From the IMG/VR virus record IMGVR_UViG_3300043543_000230, positions 1 through 23,503 of that record: 23,503 nucleotides of DNA; one strand, 5' to 3'. The notes under the pieces are model-generated. The model was not told the origin of the DNA, did not search any database, and worked only from the letters and a program-made list of their open reading frames with translations. How positions within the stretch are numbered: position 1 is the first letter of the stretch; the number at the start of each line of letters is the position of its first letter. Below are positions 8,296-23,503 of this stretch, in pieces. Both the position numbers and the translations under genes were made by a program. The DNA comes from a virus.

Positions 8296-8304
8296 TGAGT
8301 TCAG

Positions 8305-8317
8305 AAGGGAGGTGATC
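8305..8317 (+). promoter_or_regulatory. Near-perfect Shine-Dalgarno for the Bbp16-like gene
   Basis: AAGGGAGGTGATC contains ten consecutive bases (GGAGGTGATC) complementary to the 16S rRNA 3' end. It ends two bases before ATG 8320. It is the best ribosome site in the window. Confidence 0.8.
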
Positions 8318-8319
8318 CG

Positions 8320-8751
8320 ATGATCTTCGATCAAGAGAACCTGTTCAGCGACCGCCAGTCGGTGGTCGGTAGCAATGGTGCGACCATCAATTCGACGAAC
8401 ACTATCGATCTCGGCGAGGCGACGTTCAATCGTGATGTGGGGCTGGCGAATGTTCCGCTGCGGGTGCAGGTTGTGGAGGATGTGGCGGGCTCTGGTTCGT
8501 CTTTGACTGTCGAAGTCGAGACTTCGAACGCCGAGAACTTCAGTTCCAGTGCCGTCATTGCAACTACACCTGCTGTGCCCGTAGCGTCGCTGAAGGCGGG
8601 CTACGTCTTCCCGGAATTGCAACTGCCCATCGGCTCGACCCGACGTTACGTGCGATTGCGCTACAAGATTACTGGCGCTGCTACGACCGCCGGCAAGGTG
8701 ACCGCGGGCGTTGTTCACGGCCACGATTTCAGTCGCTATCGGGCTCTCTGA
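8320..8751 (+). CDS. Bbp16-like virion protein (probable capsid decoration protein)
   Basis: A 143-residue beta-rich protein immediately after the capsid gene, the position of Bbp16 in BPP-1. The opening MIFDQENLFSDRQ is the typical start of this family, in which the 'LFSDxQ' segment is conserved. The rest alternates beta strands with Gly/Ser/Thr loops and ends YVRLRYKITGAATTAGKVTAGVVHG. Position and family suggest a protein that decorates or cements the capsid exterior; this is inference from BPP-1-like virions. The strong Shine-Dalgarno implies synthesis at a level comparable to the capsid protein. Confidence 0.8.
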   Translation: MIFDQENLFSDRQSVVGSNGATINSTNTIDLGEATFNRDVGLANVPLRVQVVEDVAGSGSSLTVEVETSNAENFSSSAVIATTPAVPVASLKAGYVFPELQLPIGSTRRYVRLRYKITGAATTAGKVTAGVVHGHDFSRYRAL

Positions 8752-8773
8752 TAGTCGGGTAGGGTGATGACGT

Positions 8774-9379
8774 GTGGCCTCGCCAGTCGACAGTCCGGTC
8801 GCTCTTTGCAATCTTGCGCTCGGGTACGTAGGTAAACCGTTCATCTCGGCGCTGGACGAAAACAGCGCCGAGGCCGCGGCGTGTGCGCTGTACTGGCCGG
8901 TGGCGCGGCAGACATTGCTGCAAGTTAGCCTGTGGACGTTCGCGTTGCGGCGCATTGTTTTGGCGCAGATCGAGAACGACTTCCCGACTGCCTACTCCTA
9001 CGCTTATGCTTATCCAGTCAATGCCCTGCGCATCGTCCGTTTGTTCCCCGCCGATCGTCCCGTACGCCGGCGCGGTCTCCCCGAGCCTGACTTCGAGGTC
9101 CGCGAGGGTAAGATCTACACGTTCGAGCCGGCCGTTGCCGCTGAGGTTCTTGTTGATTTAGAGGACGTCACTCAGTACCCGGCACTGTTCGTCCAGGCTC
9201 TCAGCTATCACTTGGCTGAGTTCCTGGCTCGCGTTCTCGTGCGCGCGCCGGCGCTCGCGCGCGAGATGGCGACGTTCCGTGACACCGCGCTGGCTGCAGC
9301 CGTGGCAGCCGACGCGGCGCAAGACATGAAGAGCTATCTGCAAGAGCCTCCGGACGATTACAGCGACGTGCGGAGGTAG
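8774..9379 (+). CDS. Tail tubular protein A-like head-tail adaptor
   Basis: A 201-residue protein starting at GTG 8774 (MASPVDSPVALCNLAL...). The N-terminal pattern, CNLAL then a Gly, then ISALDENSAEA, then a block with Cys-x-x-x-Tyr and ARQTLLQVSLWTFALRR, is the hallmark of the T7 gp11/P22 gp4-like adaptor family. It is followed by YAYAYPVNALRIVRLF, also typical. These proteins form the ring that attaches the tail nozzle to the portal after packaging. The upstream AGGGTGATGA is only a weak ribosome site, 22 bases after the previous stop. Gene order (capsid, decoration, adaptor, nozzle) agrees. Confidence 0.85.
   Translation: MASPVDSPVALCNLALGYVGKPFISALDENSAEAAACALYWPVARQTLLQVSLWTFALRRIVLAQIENDFPTAYSYAYAYPVNALRIVRLFPADRPVRRRGLPEPDFEVREGKIYTFEPAVAAEVLVDLEDVTQYPALFVQALSYHLAEFLARVLVRAPALAREMATFRDTALAAAVAADAAQDMKSYLQEPPDDYSDVRR
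9371..9377 (+). promoter_or_regulatory. Ribosome binding site for the tail nozzle gene
   Basis: CGGAGGT overlaps the end of the adaptor gene and lies four bases before GTG 9382, fixing that start. Confidence 0.65.
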
Positions 9380-9381
9380 TC

Positions 9382-11709
9382 GTGGCCTTCCGGACGCTAC
9401 ACAGCAACTTCACTGCCGGCGAGCTGGCCCCGGCTGTTTGGGCACGGGCCGACTTGCCGAAGTATGCGCAAGGCGCCAAGGAGCTGCGTAACTTGCTTGT
9501 TCGCCCGCAGGGCGGCGTCACGTCGCGCCCCGGGACGCAGTATGTCGCTGAAATCCCGGGGCCGCTCGATGTTCCGTTTCAGCTCATGCCGTTCACGATC
9601 GCGGCCAGCGAGAGTTATGTGTTGTGCTGGGGCGACGAGCGGCTGTTCATCGTGCGGGACGGCGGGCTCGTTGCGCAAGCTAGCACTTCGCGTACGGTGA
9701 CGGTGTCGACTGTAAATGGCTATGCGAAATGCTCGCTGACTTCGCACGGGTTCGCAGCCAATGCATTGGTGTTCGTCGACCAAACTTCCGACCTCGGGCT
9801 CGATAGGTGCTTGTTTCGGGTCGAGCTGGATGGATCGAATGCATTCTGGCTACGAACGGTTCCTGGCAACGTTCGTGCACTTCGAGGTGATCTGCCTAAT
9901 ACCACGGCGCGGGTGACCGCGATCTATTCGGTGACGTCTCCGTATCCCGCGTCGGCCCTGCCTGTCTTCCTCGCGCGAGATCAAGCCACTGGTTACATCC
10001 TTCACCGCGATTACGCGGTGCGTCGACTACGGAGGCAGGCGGTCGACAATTGGACCCTGACGACTGAGACGTTCGGGCCGTCCATCTCGCCGCCGACGAA
10101 CGTCACCGCCACCCGCGAACAGAACAATGGCTCCAGGACGTACCGGTACGTCGTGTCGGCGGTGGACAATGCTACCGGCGAAGAGAGCTTGCCGAGTGCC
10201 GAAGCGACAGTGCAAAACGCTGGCACCGGTTACAAGAACCGCATTTCGTGGGATGCTGTCAGCGGGGCTGGCCGCTACATCGTCTACAAGTTCGACAACG
10301 GCGTCTTTGGCTATATCGGCGGTACCGACGGCACGTCTTTCGTCGATGACGAAATCACACCTGATACTTCCGATACGCCTCAGAAACTTCTCAATCCGTT
10401 CAATGGTGACAACAACTACCCGGCGTACGGGACTTTCTTCGAGCAGCGCCTCGTGTTGGCTGGCACGCGAGCGGCTGTCGGCGGCGTGTGGATGAGCCAG
10501 ACGGCAAGTCCGCGCAACTTCAACGTGTCGCAGCCGCTCAAAGCGAGCGACGCGATCTCGTTCCGTGTTCGCGCGAACGAGATCACCGAGCTGACTGGCG
10601 TCATCCCGATGGACAAGTTGGTGCTGTTGACCGCCAGCGGCGCTTGGACTGTGCGAGGCGGGGATCAGCAAGAGTACTTGACGCCGCGAAATGTCGTGCT
10701 GCGGCCGTTGCTCACCCGCGGTGCGGCTGAAGTGCCGCCTTTGTTGATCGGCGACGTGGTGCTCTACGCTACGCGTGGCGGGCGCGAGCTGCGAGACCTG
10801 AGCCTAACGCGCGACGTAACGAGCATCGACCTGACCATCCTTGCACGGCATCTGTTCGATGGCCGTTCGATCCGGGCTATGGCCTATCAACAGTCGCCGT
10901 TCAGTGTGGTGTGGGTTGTGTTCGATGACGGCAAAGTCGCCGCAATGACCTTCATGCCCGAGCACCAAATTTGGGCTTGGTCGTCTATTGAATTCGGTGG
11001 AACCGACGTCTTCGTCGAGAGTGTGGCAGCTGTCCCGGAGGCGCGCGGCGACGCCGTGTACTTCTTGCTGCGGCGTCGTGTGAACGGTATCATGCGCCGT
11101 TACATCGAGCGGCTGATTGATCTTTGGCCAACAGTTACCGTGCCGGCCGACGCATCCTACGAGCGCGACAGATACGCGTACGCCGATCTGGCTTCGTTTC
11201 TCGATTGTAGTCGGCGTTATGTGTTGATCGATCCGACCGGGTCCATCGATGGGCTGCATCACCTCGAAGGTGAGCGTGTAGCGGTTGTGGCCGACGGCGA
11301 GGTGTTCACTGATCTGGCGGTGATCAACGGCACTATCGAGTTGCCGATCTCGGCGCGTGTAATAGACGTGGGCTATCCTTTCATGCGGCGGCTGCGTACG
11401 CTCGACTTGGATCTCGGCTCCGTGGCCGACGTCGGCACCGTGCTGAACCGCCACAAGACCGCAGTCGATGTGCATGTACTCGTTGAAGCATCTCGGGGTT
11501 TTCGATTGGGTTACGAGGCGCCGACGCGCGTGCAATGGGCCGGTCAACCGTCGCTGGCGCCGAGCGGTGATCCGATGCTCTACAGCGGCTACGTGAGGTT
11601 GACGCCGTGGTGGGACTGGGTGCCGGGCGGTAATCTGATAATCGAACAGCCGGAGCCGCTTCCACTTACGATCGGCGCAATTCTTGTCGATTGGGAGATT
11701 GCCGCATGA
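9382..11709 (+). CDS. Tail tubular protein B-like nozzle protein
   Basis: A 775-residue protein from GTG 9382. The opening (TLHSNFTAGELAPAVWAR, LPKYAQGAKELRNLLVRPQGGVTSRPGTQYVAEI) is the standard start of T7 gp12-like tail proteins. Residues about 237-333 form a fibronectin-III-like beta domain, beginning PPTNVTAT with 'YRYVVSAVD' and 'ISWDAVSGAGRYIVYK'; such an insert is usual in this family. Further family motifs are FFEQRLVLAGT, PRNFNVSQPL, VRANEITELTGVIPMDKLVLLTASGAW and VTSIDLTILARHLF. The protein makes the distal tail tube (nozzle) through which DNA and internal proteins pass. Normal length, no frameshift. Confidence 0.9.
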   Translation: MAFRTLHSNFTAGELAPAVWARADLPKYAQGAKELRNLLVRPQGGVTSRPGTQYVAEIPGPLDVPFQLMPFTIAASESYVLCWGDERLFIVRDGGLVAQASTSRTVTVSTVNGYAKCSLTSHGFAANALVFVDQTSDLGLDRCLFRVELDGSNAFWLRTVPGNVRALRGDLPNTTARVTAIYSVTSPYPASALPVFLARDQATGYILHRDYAVRRLRRQAVDNWTLTTETFGPSISPPTNVTATREQNNGSRTYRYVVSAVDNATGEESLPSAEATVQNAGTGYKNRISWDAVSGAGRYIVYKFDNGVFGYIGGTDGTSFVDDEITPDTSDTPQKLLNPFNGDNNYPAYGTFFEQRLVLAGTRAAVGGVWMSQTASPRNFNVSQPLKASDAISFRVRANEITELTGVIPMDKLVLLTASGAWTVRGGDQQEYLTPRNVVLRPLLTRGAAEVPPLLIGDVVLYATRGGRELRDLSLTRDVTSIDLTILARHLFDGRSIRAMAYQQSPFSVVWVVFDDGKVAAMTFMPEHQIWAWSSIEFGGTDVFVESVAAVPEARGDAVYFLLRRRVNGIMRRYIERLIDLWPTVTVPADASYERDRYAYADLASFLDCSRRYVLIDPTGSIDGLHHLEGERVAVVADGEVFTDLAVINGTIELPISARVIDVGYPFMRRLRTLDLDLGSVADVGTVLNRHKTAVDVHVLVEASRGFRLGYEAPTRVQWAGQPSLAPSGDPMLYSGYVRLTPWWDWVPGGNLIIEQPEPLPLTIGAILVDWEIAA

Positions 11710-12179
11710 TGCCTGTCATCATGCCCTACGACCCGCGCCTCGCAGCGTCTTTGGCCGATCGATTGCGGGCGTCGGATCGGCAGGAGCTCGCTTTGATCGC
11801 AGGCGTCAGCCCGCGCGAGGCATTTGCGGAAATCGAGAGCGAGCCGGGCGAGGCGTGGCTGGCGTGTGTCGGCGGCGTCCCCGTGGCTGCGTTCGGGTGC
11901 GCGGCCGGCTGGTTGGGCCGGATCGGCACGCCGTGGTTTCTCGCGGCTCCTGAAGTCCAACGTTATCCGGTTTCTCTGGTTCGTATTTCGATAGGTGTTG
12001 TCGAGCGGTGGCGGCGTGCCTATCTGCTATTGGAGAACTATTGCGCCGCTGACCGTTGCGAGACAATAAACTGGCTGCGTCGTCTCGGCTTTTCGTTCGA
12101 CGAACCGGTTCGTCTGCCGGGGGGCGGTCGGGTCAGGCGCTTTTGGCTGCAAGGAGGCGCGGTGTGTGTGCTCCAGTGA
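11706..12179 (+). CDS. GNAT acetyltransferase-like protein at the T7 gp13 position
   Basis: About 157 residues from ATG 11706, which overlaps the upstream stop (ATGATG) and has GGGAG at 11693-11697. The core layout is an N-terminal helix pair, a beta pair (GEAWLACVGGVPVAAFGCAAG), then GTPWFLAAPEV, a long helix with VVERWRRAYLLLENYC, and a final NWLRRLGFSFDEPVRL. That last block is the familiar GNAT ending and is typical of the phage proteins that sit between tail protein B and gp14. The acetyl-CoA pyrophosphate loop (Q/R-x-x-G-x-G/A) is not evident, so it may be inactive and serve in virion assembly. It overlaps the next gene by 16 bases. Confidence 0.75.
   Translation: MMPVIMPYDPRLAASLADRLRASDRQELALIAGVSPREAFAEIESEPGEAWLACVGGVPVAAFGCAAGWLGRIGTPWFLAAPEVQRYPVSLVRISIGVVERWRRAYLLLENYCAADRCETINWLRRLGFSFDEPVRLPGGGRVRRFWLQGGAVCVLQ
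12151..12157 (+). promoter_or_regulatory. Ribosome binding site for the gp14-like gene
   Basis: AAGGAGG is six bases before GTG 12164, inside the end of the GNAT-like gene. It selects the MCAPV start rather than the more upstream open frame beginning at 12056. Confidence 0.7.
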
Positions 12180-12727
12180 CGGCACTCTTGGTCGGCAGTA
12201 TGGTCACGTCTACGATTGGCAGCATGCTCACGGCGCAATCGCAGGCGGCCGCCGCGCGCTATCAGGCGCAGGTGGCTACAGCCAATGCTGCCTACGCCGA
12301 ACAGCGCGCGCTGGATGCGATAGAGCGCGGGGCCGAGCGCGTCCAAGCGCTGCGGCGCGAAGGTGCTCAGGTGTTTGGCGAGCAAGTGGCCAGTCTCGCG
12401 GCCGGTAACGTCGACCTCGGACATGGCTCGCCGCTGGATTTGCTCGTTGAGACCCGCACGGGCATCGAGCTGGATACGCTGCGCGAGCGTCGCAATGCGC
12501 TCTTGGAGGCCGAGGATTATCGCCGGCAGGGTTGGAGCTATCGCGCTGAAAGTGTGCTCTCGACGGCTACTGCGCGTAACGCGCTCCGAGCTGGGCTGTT
12601 CACAACCGCAGGCGAGTTCATGACCGGTGCGGCTCGCATCGCGCGGTATCAGGCTTTGCAGGCTGAGCGGGCGCGTACTGACGCACCCGTGACCCGAGTG
12701 CGGCTGTTCGGGCTCGACGCGCCATGA
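12164..12727 (+). CDS. Internal virion (ejection) protein, T7 gp14-like
   Basis: A 187-residue protein. The reading frame is open from 12056, but GTG 12164 with AAGGAGG at 12151-12157 gives an N-terminus MCAPVTALLVGSM, matching the MC-start of T7 gp14. Residues about 5-28 are a hydrophobic Ala/Gly/Ser-rich helix that could insert in a membrane. A long helical part rich in Ala and Gln follows. The motif AAGNVDLGHGSPLDLLVETRTGIELD around residues 77-100, with the Gly-Ser/Asp pair, is characteristic of the gp14-type family. These proteins leave the capsid first and help build the trans-envelope channel. Its only cysteine is residue 2. The stop overlaps the next start in an ATGA. Confidence 0.82.
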   Translation: MCAPVTALLVGSMVTSTIGSMLTAQSQAAAARYQAQVATANAAYAEQRALDAIERGAERVQALRREGAQVFGEQVASLAAGNVDLGHGSPLDLLVETRTGIELDTLRERRNALLEAEDYRRQGWSYRAESVLSTATARNALRAGLFTTAGEFMTGAARIARYQALQAERARTDAPVTRVRLFGLDAP

Positions 12728-15561
12728 CCCGCCAGCGCTACGTCGAACAGGTCTTCAGCCGCCCCTCGCCGCAGGAAGACCTGCGGGTGCAAGTGTCGCC
12801 GGCCGCGTTCGGCGCGCAGGTTGGACAAGCACTTGTCGATACCGGGCAAGCACTCGGCGAGGTTGCCGATGTCACGGCTCAAATCGAGGCGCTCACTAAC
12901 GAGACGTTGGCACGAGAGGCCGCAGTCAAATTCAGTAAGGCCGCAGCTGATGTATTGCACGGCCAGGATGGTTACTTGCAGCTGACTGGTACGGCTGCGT
13001 TGGGCCGGCGTGGTGACTATCAGCGGCGTATCGATGAGCTTCGCGGTCGTCTGGCGCAGGATCTACCGGCCGGTGCGCGGCGTGTGTACGACCGCCTGAC
13101 GGAACCGCGTGCGCTCGCGTATTACGAGCACTTGGTGCGCCACGAAGCCGACCAATTGAAGGTCGCGACGAACGCCAATTTGTCCGCGGCGGTGGCCAAC
13201 TCGGTGGAAGACGCCGTGCGCGCGCGAGCTGATCCGGCCCTGTTTCAGTGGCATCTCGACGAAGCCCTTCAGTCACTTGATCGGTTCGCCGAGTTGAACG
13301 GCCTGCCGCCCGAGGAACGCGACTTGAAGCGCCGCGAGTTGGTGTCCAGTACCTACTTGCAGGCGATCATGGCTACTGCCGATGAACCGGGCGGGGCGCC
13401 GGTTGCGGCGGCCATGGCACGGCGCGCAACCGACAAGTTGACCGTTGCCGATCGGCAGAAACTGGACCGGATTTTGGGGCCGACCCTGCGGCGCGGCGAG
13501 GCTGCGGCATTTTTGGAGCGGTTCGCCCGTTCGCCGTCCGCTGCTTACCATTCGGGCGGTCCGCGTGATGGCTATACCGACGCCGTCGCGCGACTTCTCG
13601 GCGAGCCGTTCGCGTTGCCGCCTGGCTCGCCGGCGGTTGCCCGTGCGGTCTACGATGAGTTCGTACGGTTGGGGCTCCCGCACGCCGTAGCTCGTGCACT
13701 GACGGCCGAGGCGTATCGCGAGAACAGGTTGAACCCGAACTACATGTTCGGTGATCACATCGATGCAAAGAACATGGCAACCAACACCGGGTTGTTTTCG
13801 TGGCAGGGCGACCGCCGCGAGCGGCTCTTGGCGTGGCTGCGCGAGCGCGGGCACATCGACGAACACGGCCGTATCAAGCAAACACGTGATGCTTTGCGCG
13901 CGCAGGTCGAGTTCGCCGTTACCGAGTTGCTCAGTCGGCCTGACGCTGACGCATTCATGGGGCGCTTGAACGAGGCGAAGACGGACGACGAATTGGCCGA
14001 GTTGCTCGGTCGCGAGTACATCAAATGGGCCGTAGACGATCCGCAGTATCGCGAGCGCGGCCTGCGTGCTGTTCGTATCGGCCGCGAGCTTGTCGACCTG
14101 GCCAACGACCCGGCTATGCTCGGCGTCGAGCCGACGCCCGAGAACCGTTTCTTGATCGAACGGTTCGGCGCGTCCGAGGGATCGGCTATGATCACCGCCG
14201 AGCCGGGTACTCCCGTCGAGAGCATTCTGGGCGAGGCCGAGGCCGAGCGACGCGGGCTGACAGGGTTGACGGTCGGCTATGTGCGCCGCCGTGTGGCGGA
14301 GTTGTTCGGCGCACCATCGGCGCCGGTGTCGAGCGGCAGGCCCTTCGATTATGCCGCCGCTGCGCGCGCCATCGACGGGATCCAAGATCCGGAGCTTCGC
14401 CGGCTGGCGTGGGACGAGCTGACCGCTCGCTACAGGCGCGATACGTTTGCCCGCGAGCAAGAGCGGCAAGATATGCTCGACAGCATCTGGCAACGGCTGG
14501 TTGCCGGCGAAGAAGTCAAGCTGACGGCTGCGCAACAGATGCTGTTGGGCGCCGAGGGGGTTGCCGCGGTTAATAAGTTGATCGAAAGGATGCGAGAGGG
14601 ACCATCCACCTCTGATATTCGCGTCTACACGCAACTCCGTAAGATGGCGTTCGAAGAGCCGGAGAAGTTCTTGTTGGTCGACCTTTTGGAACATCGGTCG
14701 CACGGGTCGTTGTCCGACCAAGATTATCGTGAGCTGCATGATCTGCAACTTCGACTGCGCGCAGGTAAAGAAGCGCATCAACGTGAGCGGCAAGCCGACA
14801 TCAGCGCCAAGGCTATGTTGGAGCGCGTGAAAGCGTACGCGACGCATAAGCTCAAGTTCAACCCGCTCGGCACAGATAAAGAGGATATGAAGCACTCCCG
14901 AAAGGCGGAGCTGTTCTTGAAAGAGTTCACCAAGTTGATCGAAGCCGAAAGTTCGCAGAAACAGAAGCGCGAGTGGACAGACTTGGAGTTGATGCAGTTG
15001 GTGGATAAGTTAACTATGAAGGTGCGGACGCGGCAAGGCGAGATGGAAATGTATCTCGCAGACTACCAGCGCCGTCCCGGCGATATCGTCGAGTTGGCGC
15101 CTTTTACGGCTGAACAGTTCGGTGCGACGGCGATTGAAGCCGCGAGAGCGGCGTTGGCGCAGATCCCGCTTCACTCGACGGTGAAGAAGGATGACTTTCT
15201 GTCGCAAGACGTAGTCGTGCGGCATTTGAACAACATCCGGCGTGTACGCGAGTGGTTGCAGCACAATCCGTCGCCTACGAAGGAAGACGCGTTCGAGTTC
15301 GCGCCGCGGCTCGACATTGACCCGAGCATGGATTTGCCCGAGGGACTATTCGCCGAGGTGCCGCCAGCATCTTTGGTTCAGAAACTCGTTGACGCGGCCC
15401 AAAGCGTGTTTTCGTCTGGTTCTAGTGACAAACAGAAGTACGTCTATTTTGATGACAGCGGTCAAAAAGTAGAACTGCAAGTCCCGGAAGGTATCGAGCG
15501 TCTCAAACGATACTGGGTGCTGTTCTATTTGAGTGTGCTGCGGGGAGGCCAAGTATGGTAG
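12724..15561 (+). CDS. Internal virion (ejection) protein, gp15-like, with tail-lysozyme domain
   Basis: A 945-residue, mainly helical and charged protein between the gp14-like and giant proteins, the position of T7 gp15. Residues about 315-380 contain AEAYRENRLNPN (328-339), then NTGLFSWQGDRRERLLAWL. This is the pattern of phage tail-lysozyme domains, with a Glu in the first motif (E329 or E333 as the likely catalytic residue) and a 'G-L-F-x-W-x-G-x-R' block. Such domains cut peptidoglycan so the ejected proteins can cross the wall. The rest (400-930) is helical with no domain I recognise. The C-terminus YWVLFYLSVLRGG is hydrophobic. There is no cysteine at all. The stop overlaps the next start by seven bases (ATGGTAG). 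Confidence 0.82.
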   Translation: MTRQRYVEQVFSRPSPQEDLRVQVSPAAFGAQVGQALVDTGQALGEVADVTAQIEALTNETLAREAAVKFSKAAADVLHGQDGYLQLTGTAALGRRGDYQRRIDELRGRLAQDLPAGARRVYDRLTEPRALAYYEHLVRHEADQLKVATNANLSAAVANSVEDAVRARADPALFQWHLDEALQSLDRFAELNGLPPEERDLKRRELVSSTYLQAIMATADEPGGAPVAAAMARRATDKLTVADRQKLDRILGPTLRRGEAAAFLERFARSPSAAYHSGGPRDGYTDAVARLLGEPFALPPGSPAVARAVYDEFVRLGLPHAVARALTAEAYRENRLNPNYMFGDHIDAKNMATNTGLFSWQGDRRERLLAWLRERGHIDEHGRIKQTRDALRAQVEFAVTELLSRPDADAFMGRLNEAKTDDELAELLGREYIKWAVDDPQYRERGLRAVRIGRELVDLANDPAMLGVEPTPENRFLIERFGASEGSAMITAEPGTPVESILGEAEAERRGLTGLTVGYVRRRVAELFGAPSAPVSSGRPFDYAAAARAIDGIQDPELRRLAWDELTARYRRDTFAREQERQDMLDSIWQRLVAGEEVKLTAAQQMLLGAEGVAAVNKLIERMREGPSTSDIRVYTQLRKMAFEEPEKFLLVDLLEHRSHGSLSDQDYRELHDLQLRLRAGKEAHQRERQADISAKAMLERVKAYATHKLKFNPLGTDKEDMKHSRKAELFLKEFTKLIEAESSQKQKREWTDLELMQLVDKLTMKVRTRQGEMEMYLADYQRRPGDIVELAPFTAEQFGATAIEAARAALAQIPLHSTVKKDDFLSQDVVVRHLNNIRRVREWLQHNPSPTKEDAFEFAPRLDIDPSMDLPEGLFAEVPPASLVQKLVDAAQSVFSSGSSDKQKYVYFDDSGQKVELQVPEGIERLKRYWVLFYLSVLRGGQVW

Positions 15562-18500
15562 ATCTACTGCAACAACTGAAAGATCCTTCTGTCGACCACG
15601 TCAAGCTTTTGCTGACGCTGGAAAAACAGCAAGCGGCCGAGGCTGAGCTCGCCAACCGTCGCGCTGCCGCCGCTTCCGCGGTCGCGCTGCCGCCCCGGTT
15701 CGTCTCTGGCCTGCAGGTGGTCGACGAATACGCCATGGCGACAGGCAATCCGCCTCCGTCCGTACCGGTGACCCCCGAGGGCGTTGAAGCGCTGCGGTCG
15801 GCGATCGATGCTTTCCGGCTGGCAACGGCCGTCGAGCAAGCGCCGGCTACCGCGCGGCTGTTGGCTGCCGCGGAGCATGCGGCGTGGCTGCGGCAGGATG
15901 CCGAGCGTCTGGCCGCGTACGAGCGCATCATGCGTGAGCCGACCGCCTGGGATAAAGCCGAGGCGCTAGTGAAAGGCGTCGGCGAGGGTTTCGTCGGTGT
16001 GTTCGGGTCTACAGCGAAAGGTATGGCCGAGGCCCGCGCGCTCGGTGGACGGGCACAGCTGACTGCGGTGCAAGAAGCACTCGAAGAGACTGTCCAAGAG
16101 CTCGAAAGCGGCACGCCACGTGAAGAAGTGGTCAAAAAGCTGCGGCGTCCTCGATTGTGGATGCTGACGGACCCGGTGGCGAGCGAAGTCTACAAAGAGG
16201 CGATCACTCGGGTCGAGCGCGGCGAGCCGCTCACCGATCTGTTCGAGCGGTTGACGAAAGCAGCCGCCGACGAAAGCCGCGTGTCGGAACAGTGGCTGTA
16301 CCGGATCGGCGAGACGCTACAGCGTGACGCCGCGCGAGTGTTTGCGCCGCCGCTTGGTACGGAGGCCAGCGTCTGGCGCGATCTGGGTGCGGCGTTCGGT
16401 TCGTTCGGGGCGTTCGCTACTACCGGACTGCTTACGCGCGGGTTCTTCGGCCGTGTCGGCAGCCAGCTGTCGATGTTTGGCGTTGCGACCGCGACCGGCA
16501 TCGACGAAGCGTATCAGCGGGCGTTGGCCGCCGGGTTGTCGCCAAGCGAAGCGCTCGACAAGGCACTACAAGGCGCGCCGGCTGGTTTCATCCAGGCGCT
16601 GTCGGTAGAGTTCGCGCTGCGGCGGCTGTTGCCGCCACCTGCCAGCCGTCGCGTGTTGCAGCTCGCGGCTGATATCGCTGCTACGGCTGGCGGCGAAGCC
16701 GTAGTCGAGACGCTCGGAGTGATCATGCAAAACATGGTCGAGCGCACTTATAACCCCGAGCGAGACTTGTTCGAGGGCACGCTTTACCAGGGGCTGATTG
16801 CCGGTTCGGCGGCTGCGTTGTTCCGGTCGCTGCTCTACGCGGTCATCCCCGGCGCGCGGCGGTCGCTGTACCGCGATATAGAGCGGGCCGAGGTCTCGGC
16901 CGACATGCAGCGCACGATGGAACTGTTGAGTGCTGGCGTGTCGGGCGAAGAGCTGCGCAAGAAAGCACCACCCCGGTTCAGGGCCTGGGCGGAGGCCGCC
17001 GCGACCGGCACGCCGGCCGAGACGGTTTACGTGTCGCCCGAGGGCGTGACGGCGCTCGCGCAGACCGTTGGCGGTATCTCGCGGGCTATGGAGTTGCTGG
17101 CAGCGGTCGACCCGTCGCTCACAGCCGAGACGGTCCGCGAGGCGTTGGCCGAGGGCCGCGACATTTCCGTGCCGATGGCCGCATGGCTTTCCAGCGTGGT
17201 GGGTTCGGGGCTCGACACCGCTTTGATGCCGTACATCCGGCTCGACCAAGAGCAACTTACCGCTGCCGAGCGCGCCCGACTGACGCCGGAGCTCGAAGCT
17301 GAGCTGGCGGACATCCAGGCCCGCTCGGCGGCCGAAGCGCGTGGCGAGGCTGTCGAGCGCCCCGTCACGCCGGTCGAGCGGATGCGGGCCGAGGTCTACG
17401 AGACCGTGCGGCAACAGCTCGTAGGCGCTGGCCAGACGGAGAGCGTGGCAGCCGCCACGGCGGCGCAGTACGCGGCGGCCTACGGCCGGCTGGCCGAGCG
17501 CTCGACGCTGTCGCCAGAAGAGTTCCTGCGCCGCTTCCCGCCGGTGGCCGTGCGCGCCGAAGCGGGCGGAACGGCCGTAGGTATGCCCGAGACCGTAGCC
17601 GAGGCGATGGCCGAGTTGGTGCGCCACGCGCGGAGCGGCGCGCCGCTGTCTCCCGTCGGCCGCAAGCTGGCAGAGTTGATCCAGCGGCTCGGTGGCGATC
17701 CGCGGACGATCTCGCTCGATGAGCTCCGCGATTTGCTGGCGTCCGCTGTCACGCGGGGTGCGGTAGCTCGCGGCGCGGCCCCTGGATCGGCCGAAGCCGG
17801 TCGCGAGTTGACGGCCGAGGATCTTGAGCGAATGCCGGTTGATACTCTGGTAGAGGCCCTCACGACCGTGCCGGAAGGCCCGTCGGAAGCTGCGGCGCCC
17901 GTGGATGTCGAACGCAAGCCTTTGACGCAAGACGGTGCTCTGGCTCAGGTTGCCGACGGCGCCGGCGAGTTTACCACGCTGCCGGATCGCCCACAGCTGC
18001 CGGTTCGGGTGCGCGACGGTCTCGCGCCGTTGTATCATTGGAGCCACCTGCGGCTCAAGGCTATCGACCCGGCGCGGGCTGGCACCGGCCCGTTGCGTGG
18101 CGCGGAGCGTTTCCGTGGCGGGCCGCCGAAGAGCTTCTACGGGTTGAACGTCGATGATCCGCGCATTGGTTATCGGCCGGAGCGGGGGCTTGGCCCTTAC
18201 ATGCACGTGGTGGCAGTCGACCCGCGCAAGTTGTACCCGTGGTACGAGGACCCCGACGGCATCAAGACTTCGAAGTTGTATCCGTGGCGCGATGAGATCG
18301 CAGCTGCGAAACAACGGCCGCCTGTGACGACAGAAGAGCTGGTTGCGAAGTACGAAGAGCTGATCAAGGAGGCAGGTTACCTCGGCTACTATATCACCAA
18401 TGACGGCCAGGGTTCTGCGCCGCTTGGCACTGTAGCGGCACTGTTCTATCCTATGCCTGTCGAAGGTGCGGGTGATGCGGACACTGGGCAGGTGCTGTAT

Positions 18501-21500
18501 CAGTCGACAGGCAACAAATGGTACTATTCGGCGCTGGCACGTGCTGTCGAAGCTATGAAGCAGACGGTAGCGCCGGCAAGCCAGTGGAAAGGTGCGATCA
18601 AGAACTTACCCGGCGTCAAGGCCGACGAGCTGAAATGGACTGGCATACTCGAATACCTGGATGCCCGCGGCAAGGATAAGGTCACCAAGGCCGAGTTGTT
18701 GGCTTATCTGGAAGCCAACGGGTTGCAGGTCAAAGCAGCGATCCGGACGGAACCTTCTTACACTTCGGACCCGGCAGAACTATCCGATGCCGAGATTGTC
18801 GAACGGAGAGAGCCTCCGCGATACGGGAAGTACATAGTATCTGTTAAGAATTATACTGAGTATGGCGAAGTTCTCATCGTATCACCCGGGTTGGCGGACA
18901 CCGGGCTCAACGTGTTTCTTCCGCGAGCTTCAGTAGAGAACATCAAGACGCACTTTTCAGACGCTCGCCCGTTGAGCCATTTACGCTATACGGTGCGTAC
19001 AGCGCCGAACAAAGGGCGCGCGTTTTTCATCGAAGAGGTGCAATCCGACTTCGGTACGCAGCTGGCCGAAGCTGTGAAATTCGATCCGGCGACCGCTATT
19101 GTCAGCCCAGAAGCTGCCACCGAGATACGCCTATCGGCGACAACAAGCTCGGCTGATGAAGCGGCGAGTTTGACCTCTGGGCTGTCAAGTCAAGAATTGT
19201 ATTCGAATGTAGAAGACCGCGCCAGAAAAGTTTTTAAATTGATCGCGCTTTTTACTGGCCCGGGCCTGCCGCGGGAGGTAAAAGAAAAGATCAGTAGGTT
19301 AGGGCCTGAGACCCGTGATATGTATTATTTCAGCTATTGGATGGACTGGCTGGAGACGCAGCCACAAGCCGATCGATTTATCGAGCGTTTGTGGCGTGCT
19401 TTTGCCGTGCTCGCTACCGACATCGAGACGGCCGGTTCTCCTATAAAACTGTTTTTCAAAGTCGTTACGTTTTGGACCCCCGACCGTGAGAGCAAAGCGA
19501 GGTTTGCCGCCTTTTTCGACGAGTATTATTCGAGCAGTGATGAGCGAGAAGCCGAACTCGAACAGCACCATAAAGAGTTGTACGATGCGTTGGACAGCTA
19601 TCTAGAAGCTGTGGATGCTTACGCAAAGAAGATTTCGCTGGCAAAACTACACAAGTCTCGGGAAAATTCGTTGCTTGGTCTCGATCAATATTTGGTTGAC
19701 TACTATGGTAGATTACAACAAGAAGTTGATCTAACCGAGAAGCTCGATTTGACGTCGCACGAAGATCAAAAAGTCGTGCTTCTCGCTCACGCTGTTCGCG
19801 AAGTGATGCAGGCCGACGCGCAGTACGCAGCTGCGGTCGACCGGTTCGTGTCGACGTATGACAAATTGCCGGCCAACTGGCGGAGCGTGCTCAAAGAGAA
19901 AGCGCTGGACCCGAAAAATTTGTTGATGCTTATGAATTCCGATGAACTGATGCAGCGTGTTACAGACGCTGTAAACCTTTACATAAAGAAAGTACCGAGG
20001 TTTTCGAACACGATTAAAGATGCGCGTACGCACCTCACCGTTTATTATCGTTGGTTGATGGCCGTCGACGAGGCGTTTGTCGAGCTCAATGCCGCCAAAC
20101 TCGCCGACATCGAAAACCCAGAAACAGCCGCTATCGGAGAAGGACCGGTCACCCGTAATTTTCCCGAGCTGGGGGCGGCTATTATCAAAAAGGACGTCGC
20201 GTTCTTCAAAACACGTGACATCTACATTGCGCGGCTTTCGCGTGCGTTCAACGTACCGGTCGAAGAACTGGCCCGTGCCGCAAGAATGCACGGTGGTTTG
20301 AAGCCGGATAGTTCGGCCTATGAGCGTTCCTCCAAGGTGGCGGCTGCGGTCGATGAAACATTCAACAAGCTGGCCACCGAACTGCCACCGGTAGCCAGTT
20401 CACTGGCCCTCGCGCCGACGTGGTTGCATGCCGGCATAGCTTCGCCTGCAGATTTGCTCGAATGGGCTCAGCTACCCGAGGCCGACGCTGAGCAACGTAT
20501 CGTTGCGGCTGCGGGCGGGTACGCTACGATAGCCGACGAACTACGCAGCCGCGTGGCTGCGATACGCGCCCAGCTGGCCGACGCGACAGCCGACGGCCTT
20601 GCTGCCGTGGCCGACTACATCGCCGCCGTGCGCGCAGCCGAGCAACTCGTGACGGCGAGCCCGACCAATAGCATCGAAAGTGACGTCGCGTCAGGCCTTA
20701 TGCGAAACGTCCCCATGTCGCCGCTGGATCGCTCCGGGCTGCAACTTCTCGCCGTCAAGTGGGCGCTTCACCACGCAGTCAGGCAGGGTTACGATCGGTT
20801 CGCTTGGACGCCAGCCTACGTCCAGGAACAGCGTTGGAATACGGCCGTACAGAACGTCGTTCGGCGCGTTTGGTGGGCCGCGCCGATGCCGGAAGCCAGC
20901 GCCGAGCAGGCCGCCAAGCTACAGGCGGCACGCGAGAAACTCCGGCAGCGCGCACTCAAGACAGTGCTGAAAGAGAGTTTCGACATCGATGAAATCAACG
21001 AGCGCGTACATTTGGAACTGGCTGAACGTCTACCGGCCGGCTTGCTCCATGCACACTTCAACGGGGACAAAGAAGCAGCCGGGCGCGCTGCGTTGGCCGT
21101 CGTACAGCACTACATCGATCGCGTCATCAATGACAGCGAGCGCTCTGTATTCTACGCCGCTGTCGGCACGCTGCCTGAGCACATAGGTTACCGCGCTGTC
21201 GTGACCTCGCTTCATACTTCCGCGGCTGATTTGCTTGTTGAAAACGTGCCGCTGAATTTTGCGCAGGAGTTGGAGTATCACTACTGGCGCACGGAGTTGC
21301 GACGCATAAGCAACGTGGTTGGTCGAAACACAACTATTTGGTACAACGAGCAAGACTTGGGCGCTGCATACGCCGATATACTGGATGATCATCTGGCTCG
21401 CGCGATTGGCGCACACCGCATCGTGCATCTGGATATCGGTACGCAAGATCAATCTACCGACTACATCATCTCGCTTCTTGTCGACCGCAACGGCATTGTA

Positions 21501-23503
21501 GTCGGGCTCGGCGCCTCGGAGCCGCCCTCCAACGCGCAGGAAACAGTACAACAGCTGTTGGGTACGCGGCTGAGTGCAACCATCGGCGATGCGCTCACGG
21601 CACGGGTTCTCGAAGAAGAGAGAGGCGAAGCGGACGCATCCGACGTGAAGTTCGGGTCGAGCGGGTACGAGACCGTCTACGACAAGCTGATCAAGAAGTT
21701 CGTAGACGATTTCGCGAAGAAGTACGGCGCGCGCGCAGAAAAAATGGAAGATTTGTTCAGGCCTGAAGAAAAATCACGGGTCGACGATGTCAAGCTGTTC
21801 ATGCAGATGTCATCGCATAAACGTGAGCGCTTGTTAAACGAAGACTTCATGAAAGCTTTCATGCGAGGGCGCGGGCGTTCCTCGGAGCGTGTCGAGCGGT
21901 TTTTGCGAAAGATCCACGAAGCGATCAGCGCAGGCGGTGACGCAACCCTGGCCGATCGATGGGCACGACAAGTCGCCGAAGACTTGCGGGATGGGCTCGA
22001 CGGCCTCATCGTAACCGATGAGCGCATGTTGTCTCTGAGAGGCAAAGAAGCCAAAGTCGAGACCTATGAGGTAGTAAAGCTGCGCAGATTGAGAGACAAG
22101 GTGATGGATACCTTGGATGACGCAGCCCGCGATGTCGACATTGACAAGCTGAGCTACGCGGTAGGACTGTTGTATCCGGAAGCCGATACGGACGTACGAG
22201 ATATCATCAGAGAGACCGTTGCGTACACAGCTGTTTCCGACGAAAACAACACCGAGGTAAGCACTGCGTTCGGACGAGGTGTACGCAGTATCTACGAAGA
22301 AGACGACTTTACATTCAGTTCAATTATTGCCGTCCTGGACGAAATGCGACGCGAGATCGAACCTGAAGACGCCGACGTCGAGCCCCCCGAGTGGGTTTGG
22401 GGCGTCCGGATCACGCCGCAAATGCGTGAAGCCGCACTCAAAGGCTTCCCGCTGTTCCAGCCCGGAATGCAGCGCAAGGTTCGCGGCCAGATCGTGCTGC
22501 CGCCGCGGCAGGGAGAGCGCGCCGTCATCACGCTGTTCGCGCAGGCGAACCTGTCGACGCTGCTTCACGAGATGGGCCACCACTACCTGTGGATCATGGA
22601 GCAACTCGTAAAGTCCGGCGAGGCGAAGCCGGATCTGGCTGCCGACTGGCAGACGATTGGGCAGTGGTGGGCCGAGAATGCCGACACGGTGGCCGAAGAT
22701 GCGAGCCGCATCGGCCCGGCGGTGACGGCAGACGATGTGCGGACGTACCTCGCCACCGGGTCGACAGGGCGCGGCGACGCCGACCGGGCGATTTGGACTG
22801 CGCTACAAGAATTGTGGGCGCGCGGCACCGAGGCCTACCTCCGCGAAGGTCGCGCACCGTCGAACGCCCTACGGCGGGCGTTCCACGCGTTCCGAGCGTG
22901 GCTCACGGCGATCTACCGCTCGCTCGATGAGCTGCGCGTACGCGTCAGCCCGGCGATCCGCACCGTATTCGACAGGCTGTTCGCGACCGAGGCCGAGCTC
23001 GAAGAGGCCCGCGGGCGCGAGAACCTCGGCCGGCTGTCGGAGAAACTGGCCGAACAGTTGGGCTTGCCGCCGGAGCGGTGGCGCCGCCTGAAAGAGTTGG
23101 AGGACGAAGCGCTCCGCGAGCAAGAGGCTACCGCGGTCTACGAGATATTGACCGAAGTGCACGCTGAGGTGGACGAACAACGACGCGAGCGCGAAGCGGC
23201 GTTACGCGCGGCGGCGCTGGCCGAGCTGCGCCAGCGCCCCGAGTATCGTGCGCTGGCCATCCTCGGCGACCTCCGCGACCCGAGCGACCCGAATGCCCCT
23301 ACGGCCGTGCCACCCGAGCAACGGCTCGACCGCCGCGAGCTCATCGAGCGCTACGGCCCCGACGTGCTGCGAGCGTTGCCGCGCGGGCGGCGGGCCATCT
23401 ACACGGCCGAGGGCGTGCAAGGCATGCCGCTCGACGCGGCCGCCGAGATGCTCGGCTTCCGCTCGGGCGACGAACTGGTACAGACGCTGCTTCGCACACC
23501 ACC
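15555..23503 (+). CDS. Giant polyvalent ejection protein (partial, runs off the right edge)
   Basis: I translated this frame from ATG 15555 to the window end: 2649 complete codons, no stop and no cysteine. It occupies the gp16 place. Order: helical N-terminus (1-150); Gly/Ala-rich, membrane-active-looking region (about 274-432); conserved block 492-575 (YVSPEGVTALAQ ... LMPYIRLD); block 607-674; ART-like domain (825-968); polyvalent core from VLYQSTGNKWYYSALARAVE (980) through FIEEVQSDF (1159-1166), LQLLAVKWALHHAV to FAWT (to 1752), YETVYDKLIKKFVDDFAKKYG (from 2038) and RITPQMREAALKGFPLFQ (from 2285); HExxH metallopeptidase (HEMGH, 2338-2342); C-terminal helical tail with a GFRSGDELVQTLL ending seen in this family. 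Three parts of the core are expanded. Likely stored in the capsid and injected with DNA. ATG 15555 overlaps the previous stop (ATGGTAG); GGGGAGG lies at 15542-15548. Confidence 0.88.
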   Translation, partial: MVDLLQQLKDPSVDHVKLLLTLEKQQAAEAELANRRAAAASAVALPPRFVSGLQVVDEYAMATGNPPPSVPVTPEGVEALRSAIDAFRLATAVEQAPATARLLAAAEHAAWLRQDAERLAAYERIMREPTAWDKAEALVKGVGEGFVGVFGSTAKGMAEARALGGRAQLTAVQEALEETVQELESGTPREEVVKKLRRPRLWMLTDPVASEVYKEAITRVERGEPLTDLFERLTKAAADESRVSEQWLYRIGETLQRDAARVFAPPLGTEASVWRDLGAAFGSFGAFATTGLLTRGFFGRVGSQLSMFGVATATGIDEAYQRALAAGLSPSEALDKALQGAPAGFIQALSVEFALRRLLPPPASRRVLQLAADIAATAGGEAVVETLGVIMQNMVERTYNPERDLFEGTLYQGLIAGSAAALFRSLLYAVIPGARRSLYRDIERAEVSADMQRTMELLSAGVSGEELRKKAPPRFRAWAEAAATGTPAETVYVSPEGVTALAQTVGGISRAMELLAAVDPSLTAETVREALAEGRDISVPMAAWLSSVVGSGLDTALMPYIRLDQEQLTAAERARLTPELEAELADIQARSAAEARGEAVERPVTPVERMRAEVYETVRQQLVGAGQTESVAAATAAQYAAAYGRLAERSTLSPEEFLRRFPPVAVRAEAGGTAVGMPETVAEAMAELVRHARSGAPLSPVGRKLAELIQRLGGDPRTISLDELRDLLASAVTRGAVARGAAPGSAEAGRELTAEDLERMPVDTLVEALTTVPEGPSEAAAPVDVERKPLTQDGALAQVADGAGEFTTLPDRPQLPVRVRDGLAPLYHWSHLRLKAIDPARAGTGPLRGAERFRGGPPKSFYGLNVDDPRIGYRPERGLGPYMHVVAVDPRKLYPWYEDPDGIKTSKLYPWRDEIAAAKQRPPVTTEELVAKYEELIKEAGYLGYYITNDGQGSAPLGTVAALFYPMPVEGAGDADTGQVLYQSTGNKWYYSALARAVEAMKQTVAPASQWKGAIKNLPGVKADELKWTGILEYLDARGKDKVTKAELLAYLEANGLQVKAAIRTEPSYTSDPAELSDAEIVERREPPRYGKYIVSVKNYTEYGEVLIVSPGLADTGLNVFLPRASVENIKTHFSDARPLSHLRYTVRTAPNKGRAFFIEEVQSDFGTQLAEAVKFDPATAIVSPEAATEIRLSATTSSADEAASLTSGLSSQELYSNVEDRARKVFKLIALFTGPGLPREVKEKISRLGPETRDMYYFSYWMDWLETQPQADRFIERLWRAFAVLATDIETAGSPIKLFFKVVTFWTPDRESKARFAAFFDEYYSSSDEREAELEQHHKELYDALDSYLEAVDAYAKKISLAKLHKSRENSLLGLDQYLVDYYGRLQQEVDLTEKLDLTSHEDQKVVLLAHAVREVMQADAQYAAAVDRFVSTYDKLPANWRSVLKEKALDPKNLLMLMNSDELMQRVTDAVNLYIKKVPRFSNTIKDARTHLTVYYRWLMAVDEAFVELNAAKLADIENPETAAIGEGPVTRNFPELGAAIIKKDVAFFKTRDIYIARLSRAFNVPVEELARAARMHGGLKPDSSAYERSSKVAAAVDETFNKLATELPPVASSLALAPTWLHAGIASPADLLEWAQLPEADAEQRIVAAAGGYATIADELRSRVAAIRAQLADATADGLAAVADYIAAVRAAEQLVTASPTNSIESDVASGLMRNVPMSPLDRSGLQLLAVKWALHHAVRQGYDRFAWTPAYVQEQRWNTAVQNVVRRVWWAAPMPEASAEQAAKLQAAREKLRQRALKTVLKESFDIDEINERVHLELAERLPAGLLHAHFNGDKEAAGRAALAVVQHYIDRVINDSERSVFYAAVGTLPEHIGYRAVVTSLHTSAADLLVENVPLNFAQELEYHYWRTELRRISNVVGRNTTIWYNEQDLGAAYADILDDHLARAIGAHRIVHLDIGTQDQSTDYIISLLVDRNGIVVGLGASEPPSNAQETVQQLLGTRLSATIGDALTARVLEEERGEADASDVKFGSSGYETVYDKLIKKFVDDFAKKYGARAEKMEDLFRPEEKSRVDDVKLFMQMSSHKRERLLNEDFMKAFMRGRGRSSERVERFLRKIHEAISAGGDATLADRWARQVAEDLRDGLDGLIVTDERMLSLRGKEAKVETYEVVKLRRLRDKVMDTLDDAARDVDIDKLSYAVGLLYPEADTDVRDIIRETVAYTAVSDENNTEVSTAFGRGVRSIYEEDDFTFSSIIAVLDEMRREIEPEDADVEPPEWVWGVRITPQMREAALKGFPLFQPGMQRKVRGQIVLPPRQGERAVITLFAQANLSTLLHEMGHHYLWIMEQLVKSGEAKPDLAADWQTIGQWWAENADTVAEDASRIGPAVTADDVRTYLATGSTGRGDADRAIWTALQELWARGTEAYLREGRAPSNALRRAFHAFRAWLTAIYRSLDELRVRVSPAIRTVFDRLFATEAELEEARGRENLGRLSEKLAEQLGLPPERWRRLKELEDEALREQEATAVYEILTEVHAEVDEQRREREAALRAAALAELRQRPEYRALAILGDLRDPSDPNAPTAVPPEQRLDRRELIERYGPDVLRALPRGRRAIYTAEGVQGMPLDAAAEMLGFRSGDELVQTLLRTP
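18027..18458 (+). other. ADP-ribosyltransferase-like domain inside the giant protein
   Basis: Residues about 825-968. LYHWSHLRLKAIDPARAGTG opens the domain with the Tyr-His pair (827-828) and the 'D-P-x-x-x-G-T-G' turn seen in the ART domain of polyvalent proteins. ERFRGGPPKSFYGLNV, the 'P-E-x-G-L-G' segment and the closing 'APLGTVAALFYPMP' strands fit the same domain. Known relatives transfer ADP-ribose from NAD+ to host proteins. The complete catalytic triad cannot be assigned by eye. Confidence 0.65.
19065..20702 (+). other. Large low-GC expansion inside the polyvalent core
   Basis: Residues about 1171-1716 separate FIEEVQSDF from LQLLAVKWALHHAV, motifs I remember as 30-60 residues apart in relatives. 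Counted by hand, single 60-base lines here are 42% GC (19201-19260), 35% (19681-19740) and 42% (19921-19980), versus 72% at 17401-17460 in the same gene. The encoded sequence is helical, charged and rich in aromatic residues; no domain recognised. Confidence 0.55.
21765..22388 (+). other. Further expansion before the ITPQMRE motif of the giant protein
   Basis: Residues about 2071-2278, between FAKKYG and WVWGVRITPQMRE, which are normally some 40 residues apart. The segment is charged and helical (for example RVERFLRKIHEAI, ADRWARQVAEDLRDGLDGL). Line 22261-22320 is 48% GC by hand count. No known domain recognised. Confidence 0.45.
22506..23009 (+). other. HExxH zinc metallopeptidase-like domain of the giant protein
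   Basis: Residues about 2318-2485. VITLFAQANLSTLLHEMGHHYL contains HEMGH (2338-2342), the zinc-binding and catalytic motif. WARGTEAYLREG supplies a conserved Glu (2426) that could be the third zinc ligand. RAFHAFRAWLTAIYRSL and VRVSPAIRTVFDRLFATEAEL complete the block always found downstream in phage polyvalent proteins. The substrate is unknown; a host protein or self-cleavage are both possible. Confidence 0.75.

What the first reader, a model, noticed from the sequence alone, without database searches (positions are those of the whole stretch)
15555..23503. Giant polyvalent protein in the gp16 slot of a T7-like ejection cassette
Directly after gp14-like and gp15-like genes, where T7 encodes gp16, lies a frame of at least 2649 residues with large-polyvalent-protein motifs rather than a gp16-type sequence. 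Polyvalent proteins (as defined by Iyer, Aravind and colleagues) are thought to be delivered into the new host along with DNA. The synteny here gives a concrete delivery route: ejection through the tail nozzle. The protein is open at the right edge, so more domains may follow.
Basis: partly seen in the sequence, partly recalled or inferred. Interest (0 to 1): 0.75.

Follow-up and report, generated by a model that had tools for sequence, protein, structure and literature searches.

The report
Giant ejected effector protein of podophages
The window carries most of a roughly 3,600-residue phage protein that sits in the gene slot for proteins squirted into the host before the DNA, and comparison with dozens of relatives suggests a constant delivery frame around an exchangeable block of enzymes, an interesting and testable member of a kind that is already known.

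Summary
ORF 15555-23501 (2649 aa, open at the right edge) follows a nozzle, an internal virion protein, a gp14-like protein and a lysozyme-bearing gp15-slot protein. An 81%-identical relative (L002) ends at 3602 aa, so about 950 residues are missing here. The cassette is of the Bordetella phage BPP-1 / epsilon15 type: the protein is a relative of BPP-1 Bbp10, not of T7 gp16. In 64 complete relatives the zinc-motif-to-C-terminus distance is nearly constant (1198 +/- 31 aa) and the N-terminal part ends near residue 630, while the block between varies from 98 to 1840 aa and carries different effector domains (ADP-ribosyltransferases, PBECR RNases, GNAT, zeta toxin, GGDEF). Here the block holds a domain without Pfam match whose predicted structure best resembles ADP-ribosyltransferases, at modest scores. 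Of 51 relatives with enough upstream DNA, 51 have the nozzle, 50 the lysozyme and 49 the gp14 gene. Best reading: a virion protein ejected through the nozzle. Virion location is not shown for this family; it is for other podophage giants (N4, JC1). Delivery of polyvalent proteins was proposed in 2017, so the concept is not new; the frame-and-cargo regularity in this slot is the main addition.

The parts
15555..23501 (+). giant polyvalent protein, residues 1-2649, open at the right edge (relative L002 ends at residue 3602)
   Evidence: phrog_9880 E 2.6e-83
15555..17624 (+). N-terminal frame, residues about 1-690, shared by the family
   Evidence: A1 alignment and bins; Nt profile ends near residue 630 in relatives; dN/dS 0.08
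15729..15947 (+). LPD22-like segment, residues 59-131 (sub-threshold in this protein)
   Evidence: 13 of 14 family members, this one included, match LPD22 at E<0.05
17970..18509 (+). divergent ADP-ribosyltransferase-like domain, residues 806-985 (LYHWS ... SFYGLN ... GYLGYYIT ... VAALF)
   Evidence: alignment A6; AlphaFold2 pLDDT 74, pTM 0.75; best Foldseek PDB match 6kyf prob 0.97, E 5.9e-3; most VIA rows with Z>=2 are ADP-ribosyltransferase-type folds; dN/dS 0.05
19023..21779 (+). EVQSD ... AWTP ... YDK...KKYG module (residues about 1157-2075) interrupted by a long, fast-evolving insertion; function unknown
   Evidence: motifs at residues 1157, 1745, 2042; compact versions in L081 and L057; identity to L002 drops to 46-60% at 1201-1500
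21807..22454 (+). fast-evolving linker before the zinc motif, residues 2085-2300
   Evidence: 48% identity, dN/dS 0.32 against 96% and 0.06 in the next domain
22452..23054 (+). zincin-like metallopeptidase domain, residues 2300-2500
   Evidence: 62-sequence alignment with invariant H, E, H, E, R, E, Y
22566..22580 (+). HEMGH zinc-binding motif, residues 2338-2342
   Evidence: invariant H2338, E2339, H2342 and downstream E2419, E2426 in 14 phage proteins
12724..15561 (+). gp15-slot internal virion protein with lysozyme domain
   Evidence: PF18013 E 6e-8; endolysin-type PHROGs; family profile matches epsilon15 gp15 (hhalign 98.7%)
13636..14076 (+). Phage_lysozyme2 domain of the gp15-slot protein (residues 305-451)
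12176..12727 (+). gp14-like internal virion protein (listed ORF starts at 12056; likely start near 12176)
   Evidence: phrog_418 E 1.6e-23
11691..12179 (+). internal virion protein A (phrog_308)
   Evidence: IVPA profile
9382..11709 (+). tail nozzle protein
   Evidence: phrog_376 E 4e-143
8774..9379 (+). tail tubular protein A-like
   Evidence: phrog_394 E 8e-34

Best explanation
The ORF encodes a Bbp10-type large polyvalent protein that is packaged in the head as the last member of the podophage ejection cassette and is ejected through the nozzle ahead of the DNA. It works as a frame plus cargo. An N-terminal frame (LPD22-like plus Gly/Ala-rich helices, about 630-690 residues) and a C-terminal frame (zincin-like HExxH domain plus about 1,200 residues with a hydrophobic helix about 145 residues from the end) would handle packaging, threading and membrane insertion. 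The block between them carries enzymes that act on the new host. Here that cargo includes a divergent ADP-ribosyltransferase-like domain and an EVQSD/AWTP module. The zincin-like domain most likely cuts the chain so that the cargo is freed. The lysozyme in the preceding protein opens the peptidoglycan. Shown here: gene order, frame conservation, cargo variability, invariant zinc-type residues. Inferred: packaging, ejection, membrane insertion, self-cleavage, ADP-ribosylation of host targets.
For: Gene order nozzle - internal virion protein - gp14 - lysozyme - giant: of 51 census loci with more than 5 kb upstream, nozzle 51, lysozyme 50, gp14 49, and the same in BPP-1, CP2, AF, HU1, Carin1, MZH0603, SR18, DC33, Ab9 and others. 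In 64 complete giants the second zinc-domain motif lies 1198 +/- 31 aa from the C-terminus (CV 2.6%) while start-to-motif is 820-2620 aa (CV 32%); the centre is 98-1840 aa. Centres match different effector families: ART-PolyVal 18 of 62 relatives, PBECR5 8, PBECR3 3, GNAT 4, zeta toxin 2, GGDEF 2, ddrB-ParB, MuF_C and others. HExxH and downstream E/R/E invariant in 62 sequences. Predicted fold of residues 806-985 matches ADP-ribosyltransferases, best 6kyf. C-terminal hydrophobic helix (19-mer hydropathy >1.6) in 40 of 64 at a fixed place, 0 of 64 in each of two control segments. Frame dN/dS 0.06-0.08, cargo outside the ART-like domain mostly 0.3-0.4. Independent precedents: JC1 gp69 in virions (PMC9144972), N4 vRNAP with NTD - cargo - HExxH - helical C-terminus (PMC12633501).
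Against: No virion proteomics for this phage or, in what I could read, for a Bbp10 homologue. The ART-like match is modest (E 5.9e-3, Z 4.7 to 5.6; Z under 8 can be a common arrangement). No Pfam ART family hits the window. The zincin fold was not confirmed by Foldseek (no match under E 1; only weak pointers to the SprT protease Spartan). Self-cleavage is untested. N4 vRNAP is packaged uncut despite its MPTase domain (PMC5512222). The N-terminal match to epsilon15 gp16 is weak and of low complexity. The census loci were selected through the zinc region, so its conservation is partly by selection.
Confidence: 0.75

Rival explanations
1. The giant is only a structural ejection protein: the central block is channel or core material and the enzyme-like domains are inactive relics.
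For: Slot and frame conservation; the block between the frames can be as short as 98 aa in some relatives, so the frame works without much cargo.
Against: Central blocks match many unrelated catalytic families; the ART-like domain is under strong purifying selection, dN/dS 0.05, with conserved H/W/S and G-Y motifs.
Confidence: 0.13
2. The protein is made late and acts inside the producing cell (head maturation protease or assembly chaperone), and is not delivered.
For: HExxH domain; P1 DdrB, which has such a domain, is processed before packaging (PMC5512222).
Against: Effector cargo against host functions is hard to explain in a producing cell; position among ejection proteins rather than next to the head protease (6623-7279, phrog_458); other giants of this plan are in virions (PMC9144972, PMC12633501).
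Confidence: 0.08
3. Assembly or annotation artefact: several genes fused by lost stops or a chimeric contig.
For: Very long ORF; the contig ends inside it.
Against: A separate contig, L002, has the same frame at 81% identity; complete phages have 1902-4012 aa homologues in the same place; dN/dS below 1 throughout.
Confidence: 0.02

Closest known systems
Bordetella phage BPP-1 Bbp10 (Rauchvirus; 'crystallin beta/gamma motif-containing protein', 2052 aa) and PHROG 9880
   Same: Same slot and neighbours; homologous N-terminal region and C-terminal 1,265 residues; LPD22 and HExxH domain
   Different: Shorter; its central block matches PBECR1 (PF18809, E 1.9e-7) instead of the ART-like and EVQSD modules
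Nostoc phage Nsp-JY18 'lysin' (4012 aa)
   Same: Nearest annotated relative: 50% identity over the C-terminal frame, 35% N-terminal, same ART-like domain at 49%, same synteny
   Different: Carries an additional module of about 560 aa with the FGHG...EENAW motif between N-terminal frame and ART-like domain
Coliphage N4 virion RNA polymerase gp50 (Schitoviridae)
   Same: Plan NTD - catalytic cargo - HExxH - long helical C-terminus; HExxH-to-end 1273 aa in N4 against a median of 1247 aa here; an ejection protein (PMC12633501)
   Different: No sequence or profile similarity in any part; cargo is an RNA polymerase; GYxP motif positions do not line up
Bcep22-like giant, e.g. Burkholderia phage JC1 gp69 (4515 aa, DarB-like)
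   Same: Giant polyvalent protein in a podovirus virion (PMC9144972); HExxH about 1,050 aa from the end
   Different: No profile similarity; LPD38, SLT, methylase and helicase domains
Cyanopodophage A4 pre-ejectosome (PDB 9k3a chain B, by length probably gp27, 1717 aa)
   Same: Last ejection slot; its structure is the top VIA match of our ART-like domain (Z 5.6); LYHGT motif
   Different: No sequence relation to the frames; no HExxH
T7 gp16
   Same: Same slot after gp14 and gp15
   Different: No detectable similarity; transglycosylase domain in gp16 itself

Membership tests
Large polyvalent proteins (Iyer et al. 2017) | two or more distinct functional domains in one polypeptide of a mobile element | tested here: met
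   ART-like domain, HExxH domain, EVQSD module, LPD22-like segment
Large polyvalent proteins (Iyer et al. 2017) | recognised LPD/PolyVal Pfam family above cut-off in this protein | tested here: not met
   LPD22 19.6 bits against a cut-off of 28.6; homologues pass
Large polyvalent proteins (Iyer et al. 2017) | zincin-like MPTase domain | tested here: inconclusive
   HExxH and downstream E invariant; fold search gave no zincin above noise
Large polyvalent proteins (Iyer et al. 2017) | encoded among virion genes | tested here: met
Large polyvalent proteins (Iyer et al. 2017) | delivered into the host with the DNA | not testable with these tools
   needs virion and ejection proteomics
Bbp10-type family (PHROG 9880) | sequence homology of N- and C-terminal frames | tested here: met
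   phrog_9880 E 2.6e-83; BLASTP to Bbp10 E 8e-29 for the window and 2e-131 for L002
Bbp10-type family (PHROG 9880) | slot after the gp14-like and lysozyme genes | tested here: met
T7 gp16 | sequence or profile similarity | tested here: not met
   2.1 and 1.9 bits, at control level
T7 gp16 | transglycosylase domain in the protein | tested here: not met
   no muralytic family in the giant; lysozyme in the gp15-slot protein
ADP-ribosyltransferase superfamily (residues 806-985) | ART fold | tested here: inconclusive
   6kyf prob 0.97, E 5.9e-3; most listed VIA rows are ARTs but Z 2-5.6
ADP-ribosyltransferase superfamily (residues 806-985) | NAD-dependent transfer activity | not testable with these tools
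   needs an assay
N4 virion RNA polymerase | RNAP domain or C-terminal sequence homology | tested here: not met
   hhalign probability below 1%; no vRNAP Pfam hits in the giant

The most novel reading that the evidence does not exclude
The plan N-terminal frame - exchangeable cargo - HExxH - roughly 1,250-residue C-terminus is one ancient delivery platform shared by descent between BPP-1-type giants, N4 virion RNA polymerase and Bcep22-type giants, diverged beyond sequence detection; N4's polymerase would then be just one of many cargoes.
Probability: 0.15. Interest if true: 0.85.

Novelty: new member of a known kind. Interest (0 to 1): 0.5.

Why it matters
If the frame-and-cargo reading is right, this slot in a large group of podophages (at least 531 viral-contig relatives; matches in many bacterial genomes) is a natural protein-injection system whose payload can be read straight from the genome: the sequence between two recognisable frame parts. 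That makes it a place to look for new anti-defence enzymes. It also makes a long-open question testable: how a protein of several hundred kilodaltons passes a nozzle a few nanometres wide and is released inside the cell.

Tried and rejected
T7 gp16 homology: at control level. Homology of the C-terminal frame to N4 vRNAP: a first hhalign run showed a short GYxP match at a suggestive place, but with seven more vRNAP C-termini it vanished, and motif spacing differs, 777 (mean) against 654-715 and 484 (mean) against 576-593 residues. Homology to Bcep22-type JC1 gp69: none. Homology of cyanophage A4 gp27 or gp28 to the frames: none. Pfam ART-PolyVal in the window by direct six-frame search: none. 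PDB sequence searches with the whole L002 protein and with the family profile: nothing above chance. Foldseek for the zinc domain: nothing above chance; 6mdw (Spartan SprT) appears with Z 2.1. Genome-contig scan for the ART-like domain: no relative confirmed. Papers on the phiRIO-1, Carin-1 and A4 virions were not held, and a text search for Bbp10 virion data found nothing useful.

Full report
What is there. The window is a fragment of a viral contig (23,503 bases, linear). Its right third is one open frame, 15555-23501, 2649 codons with no stop. Upstream lies a podophage morphogenesis run: terminase, portal (phrog_332), major head protein, tail proteins, nozzle, two internal virion proteins and a lysozyme-bearing protein. 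The giant starts inside the last codons of the lysozyme-slot gene (7-base overlap).

Completion. One IMG/VR contig (L002) carries the same cassette with a giant 81% identical over all 2649 residues; its frame ends at 3602 aa and is followed by a tail-fibre-type gene. The nearest annotated phage, Nostoc phage Nsp-JY18, has 4012 aa. So about 950 residues are missing from the window.

Family. PHROG 9880 matches at E 2.6e-83 and tblastn finds 41 phage records, among them Bordetella phage BPP-1 Bbp10. In BPP-1 and eleven other annotated relatives the order is nozzle, internal virion protein(s), lysozyme/endolysin slot, giant, in most followed by tail-fibre or lysis genes. The cassette is therefore of BPP-1/epsilon15 type. 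T7 gp16 shows no similarity above shuffled controls; epsilon15 gp16 gives 22.9 bits with the N-terminal profile against 4.2 for the best of 302 controls, a weak link through Gly/Ala-rich helices.

Frame and cargo. In 64 complete giants the second zinc-domain motif lies 1198 +/- 31 residues from the C-terminus (CV 2.6%), whereas its distance from the start is 820-2620 (CV 32%). The N-terminal profile ends near residue 630 in most. The stretch between is 98 to 1840 residues. The central stretches match different Pfam effector families: ART-PolyVal in 18 of 62 relatives, PBECR5 in 8, PBECR3 in 3, GNAT in 4, zeta toxin in 2, GGDEF in 2, and single cases of ddrB-ParB, MuF_C, RadC and LPD1/5/23. Named phages agree: BPP-1 PBECR1, SR18 and DC33 ART-PolyVal, Carin1 and Ab9 PBECR5, AF LPD23, ctCJ8213 ddrB-ParB. 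Between the window and L002, frame parts are 93-96% identical with dN/dS 0.06-0.08, while cargo stretches fall to 48-60% with dN/dS 0.3-0.4. The census was selected through the zinc region, so its presence is by construction; the fixed length of the rest, the N-terminal frame and the synteny are not.

The cargo of this phage. The window's centre has no Pfam match. Residues 806-985 form a domain found in only a few contigs. Its model (pLDDT 74, pTM 0.75, nine sequences) has as best Foldseek match 6kyf, an anti-CRISPR protein (prob 0.97, E 5.9e-3; from memory this is AcrIF11, an ADP-ribosyltransferase). VIA-align ranks 9k3a chain B, cyanophage A4 pre-ejectosome (Z 5.6), then 6kyf (Z 4.7), then RES-type toxins, PARPs and diphtheria-like toxins. 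The Z values are low, but nearly all rows are of one fold class. I call it ADP-ribosyltransferase-like, not proven. Further on, an EVQSD...AWTP...YDK module that is compact in relatives L081 and L057 is split here by an insertion of roughly 500 residues. The zinc domain has HEMGH and downstream glutamates invariant in 62 sequences; its model (pLDDT 82) gave no convincing fold match, only weak pointers to the SprT protease Spartan.

How it probably works. The protein is packaged with gp14 and the lysozyme-slot protein and is ejected through the nozzle; the lysozyme opens the wall; the frame inserts or threads (a hydrophobic helix about 145 residues from the C-terminus occurs in 40 of 64 relatives and in none of two control segments); the zinc domain frees the cargo; the cargo modifies host targets. 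These steps are inferred. Packaging and ejection are supported by slot and by precedents: N4 vRNAP (PMC12633501) and Burkholderia phage JC1 gp69, found in virions with 51 unique peptides (PMC9144972).

Wider comparison. N4 vRNAP has the order NTD, RNA polymerase, HExxH domain, long helical C-terminus. Its HExxH-to-end length (1273; 1230-1308 in six Schitoviridae proteins) is close to that of the giants (median 1247), but no profile similarity was found. JC1 gp69 has HExxH 1,051 residues before its end and LPD38, again without similarity. A4 gp27, in the same slot, carries an LYHGT motif and no HExxH. Whether these are one diverged platform or convergent is open.

Verdict. A real, near-complete member of the Bbp10-type polyvalent proteins of the ejection slot, with an unrecognised ART-like cargo. 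The kind is known; the frame-and-cargo regularity in this slot is the useful addition.

Noticed in passing
census loci L018-L096, central blocks: Among the cargo domains are zeta toxin (2 relatives), GGDEF (2) and a RadC domain (1); Iyer et al. list RadC among domains of polyvalent proteins of conjugative elements.
   Followed up: no
L059:6446-7687 and 7691-13744: A match to the N-terminal frame also appears as a separate ORF of about 413 aa just before the giant, suggesting that frame parts can be encoded separately or duplicated.
   Followed up: no
L025:6285-7543, L035:4881-6190: About 1.3 kb lies between the lysozyme gene and the giant in a few relatives; not examined for extra genes.
   Followed up: no
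L012 (Limnohabitans phage DC33, PQ492659.1): The record is classified as Inoviridae, but it carries the podophage cassette with a 3125-aa giant; the taxonomy looks wrong.
   Followed up: no
H1 and H2 (PP438410.1, PP438424.1): Nostoc phage Nsp-JY18 and Microcystis phage Mel-JY33 give almost the same match at the same spacing; they may be nearly the same phage reported from two hosts.
   Followed up: no
L182 and L183 (JAFTWQ010000019.1): One Bacteroidales MAG contig carries two matches with identical scores about 45 kb apart.
   Followed up: no
L109:20116-25269 (-), Anabaena phage A-4L gp27: LYHGT motif near residue 1424 suggests an ADP-ribosyltransferase-type domain in a protein that by length fits chain B of the solved A4 pre-ejectosome; no Pfam match.
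   Followed up: partly
window 12724-15561: The muralytic domain sits in the gp15-slot protein; in T7 it is in gp16.
   Followed up: yes
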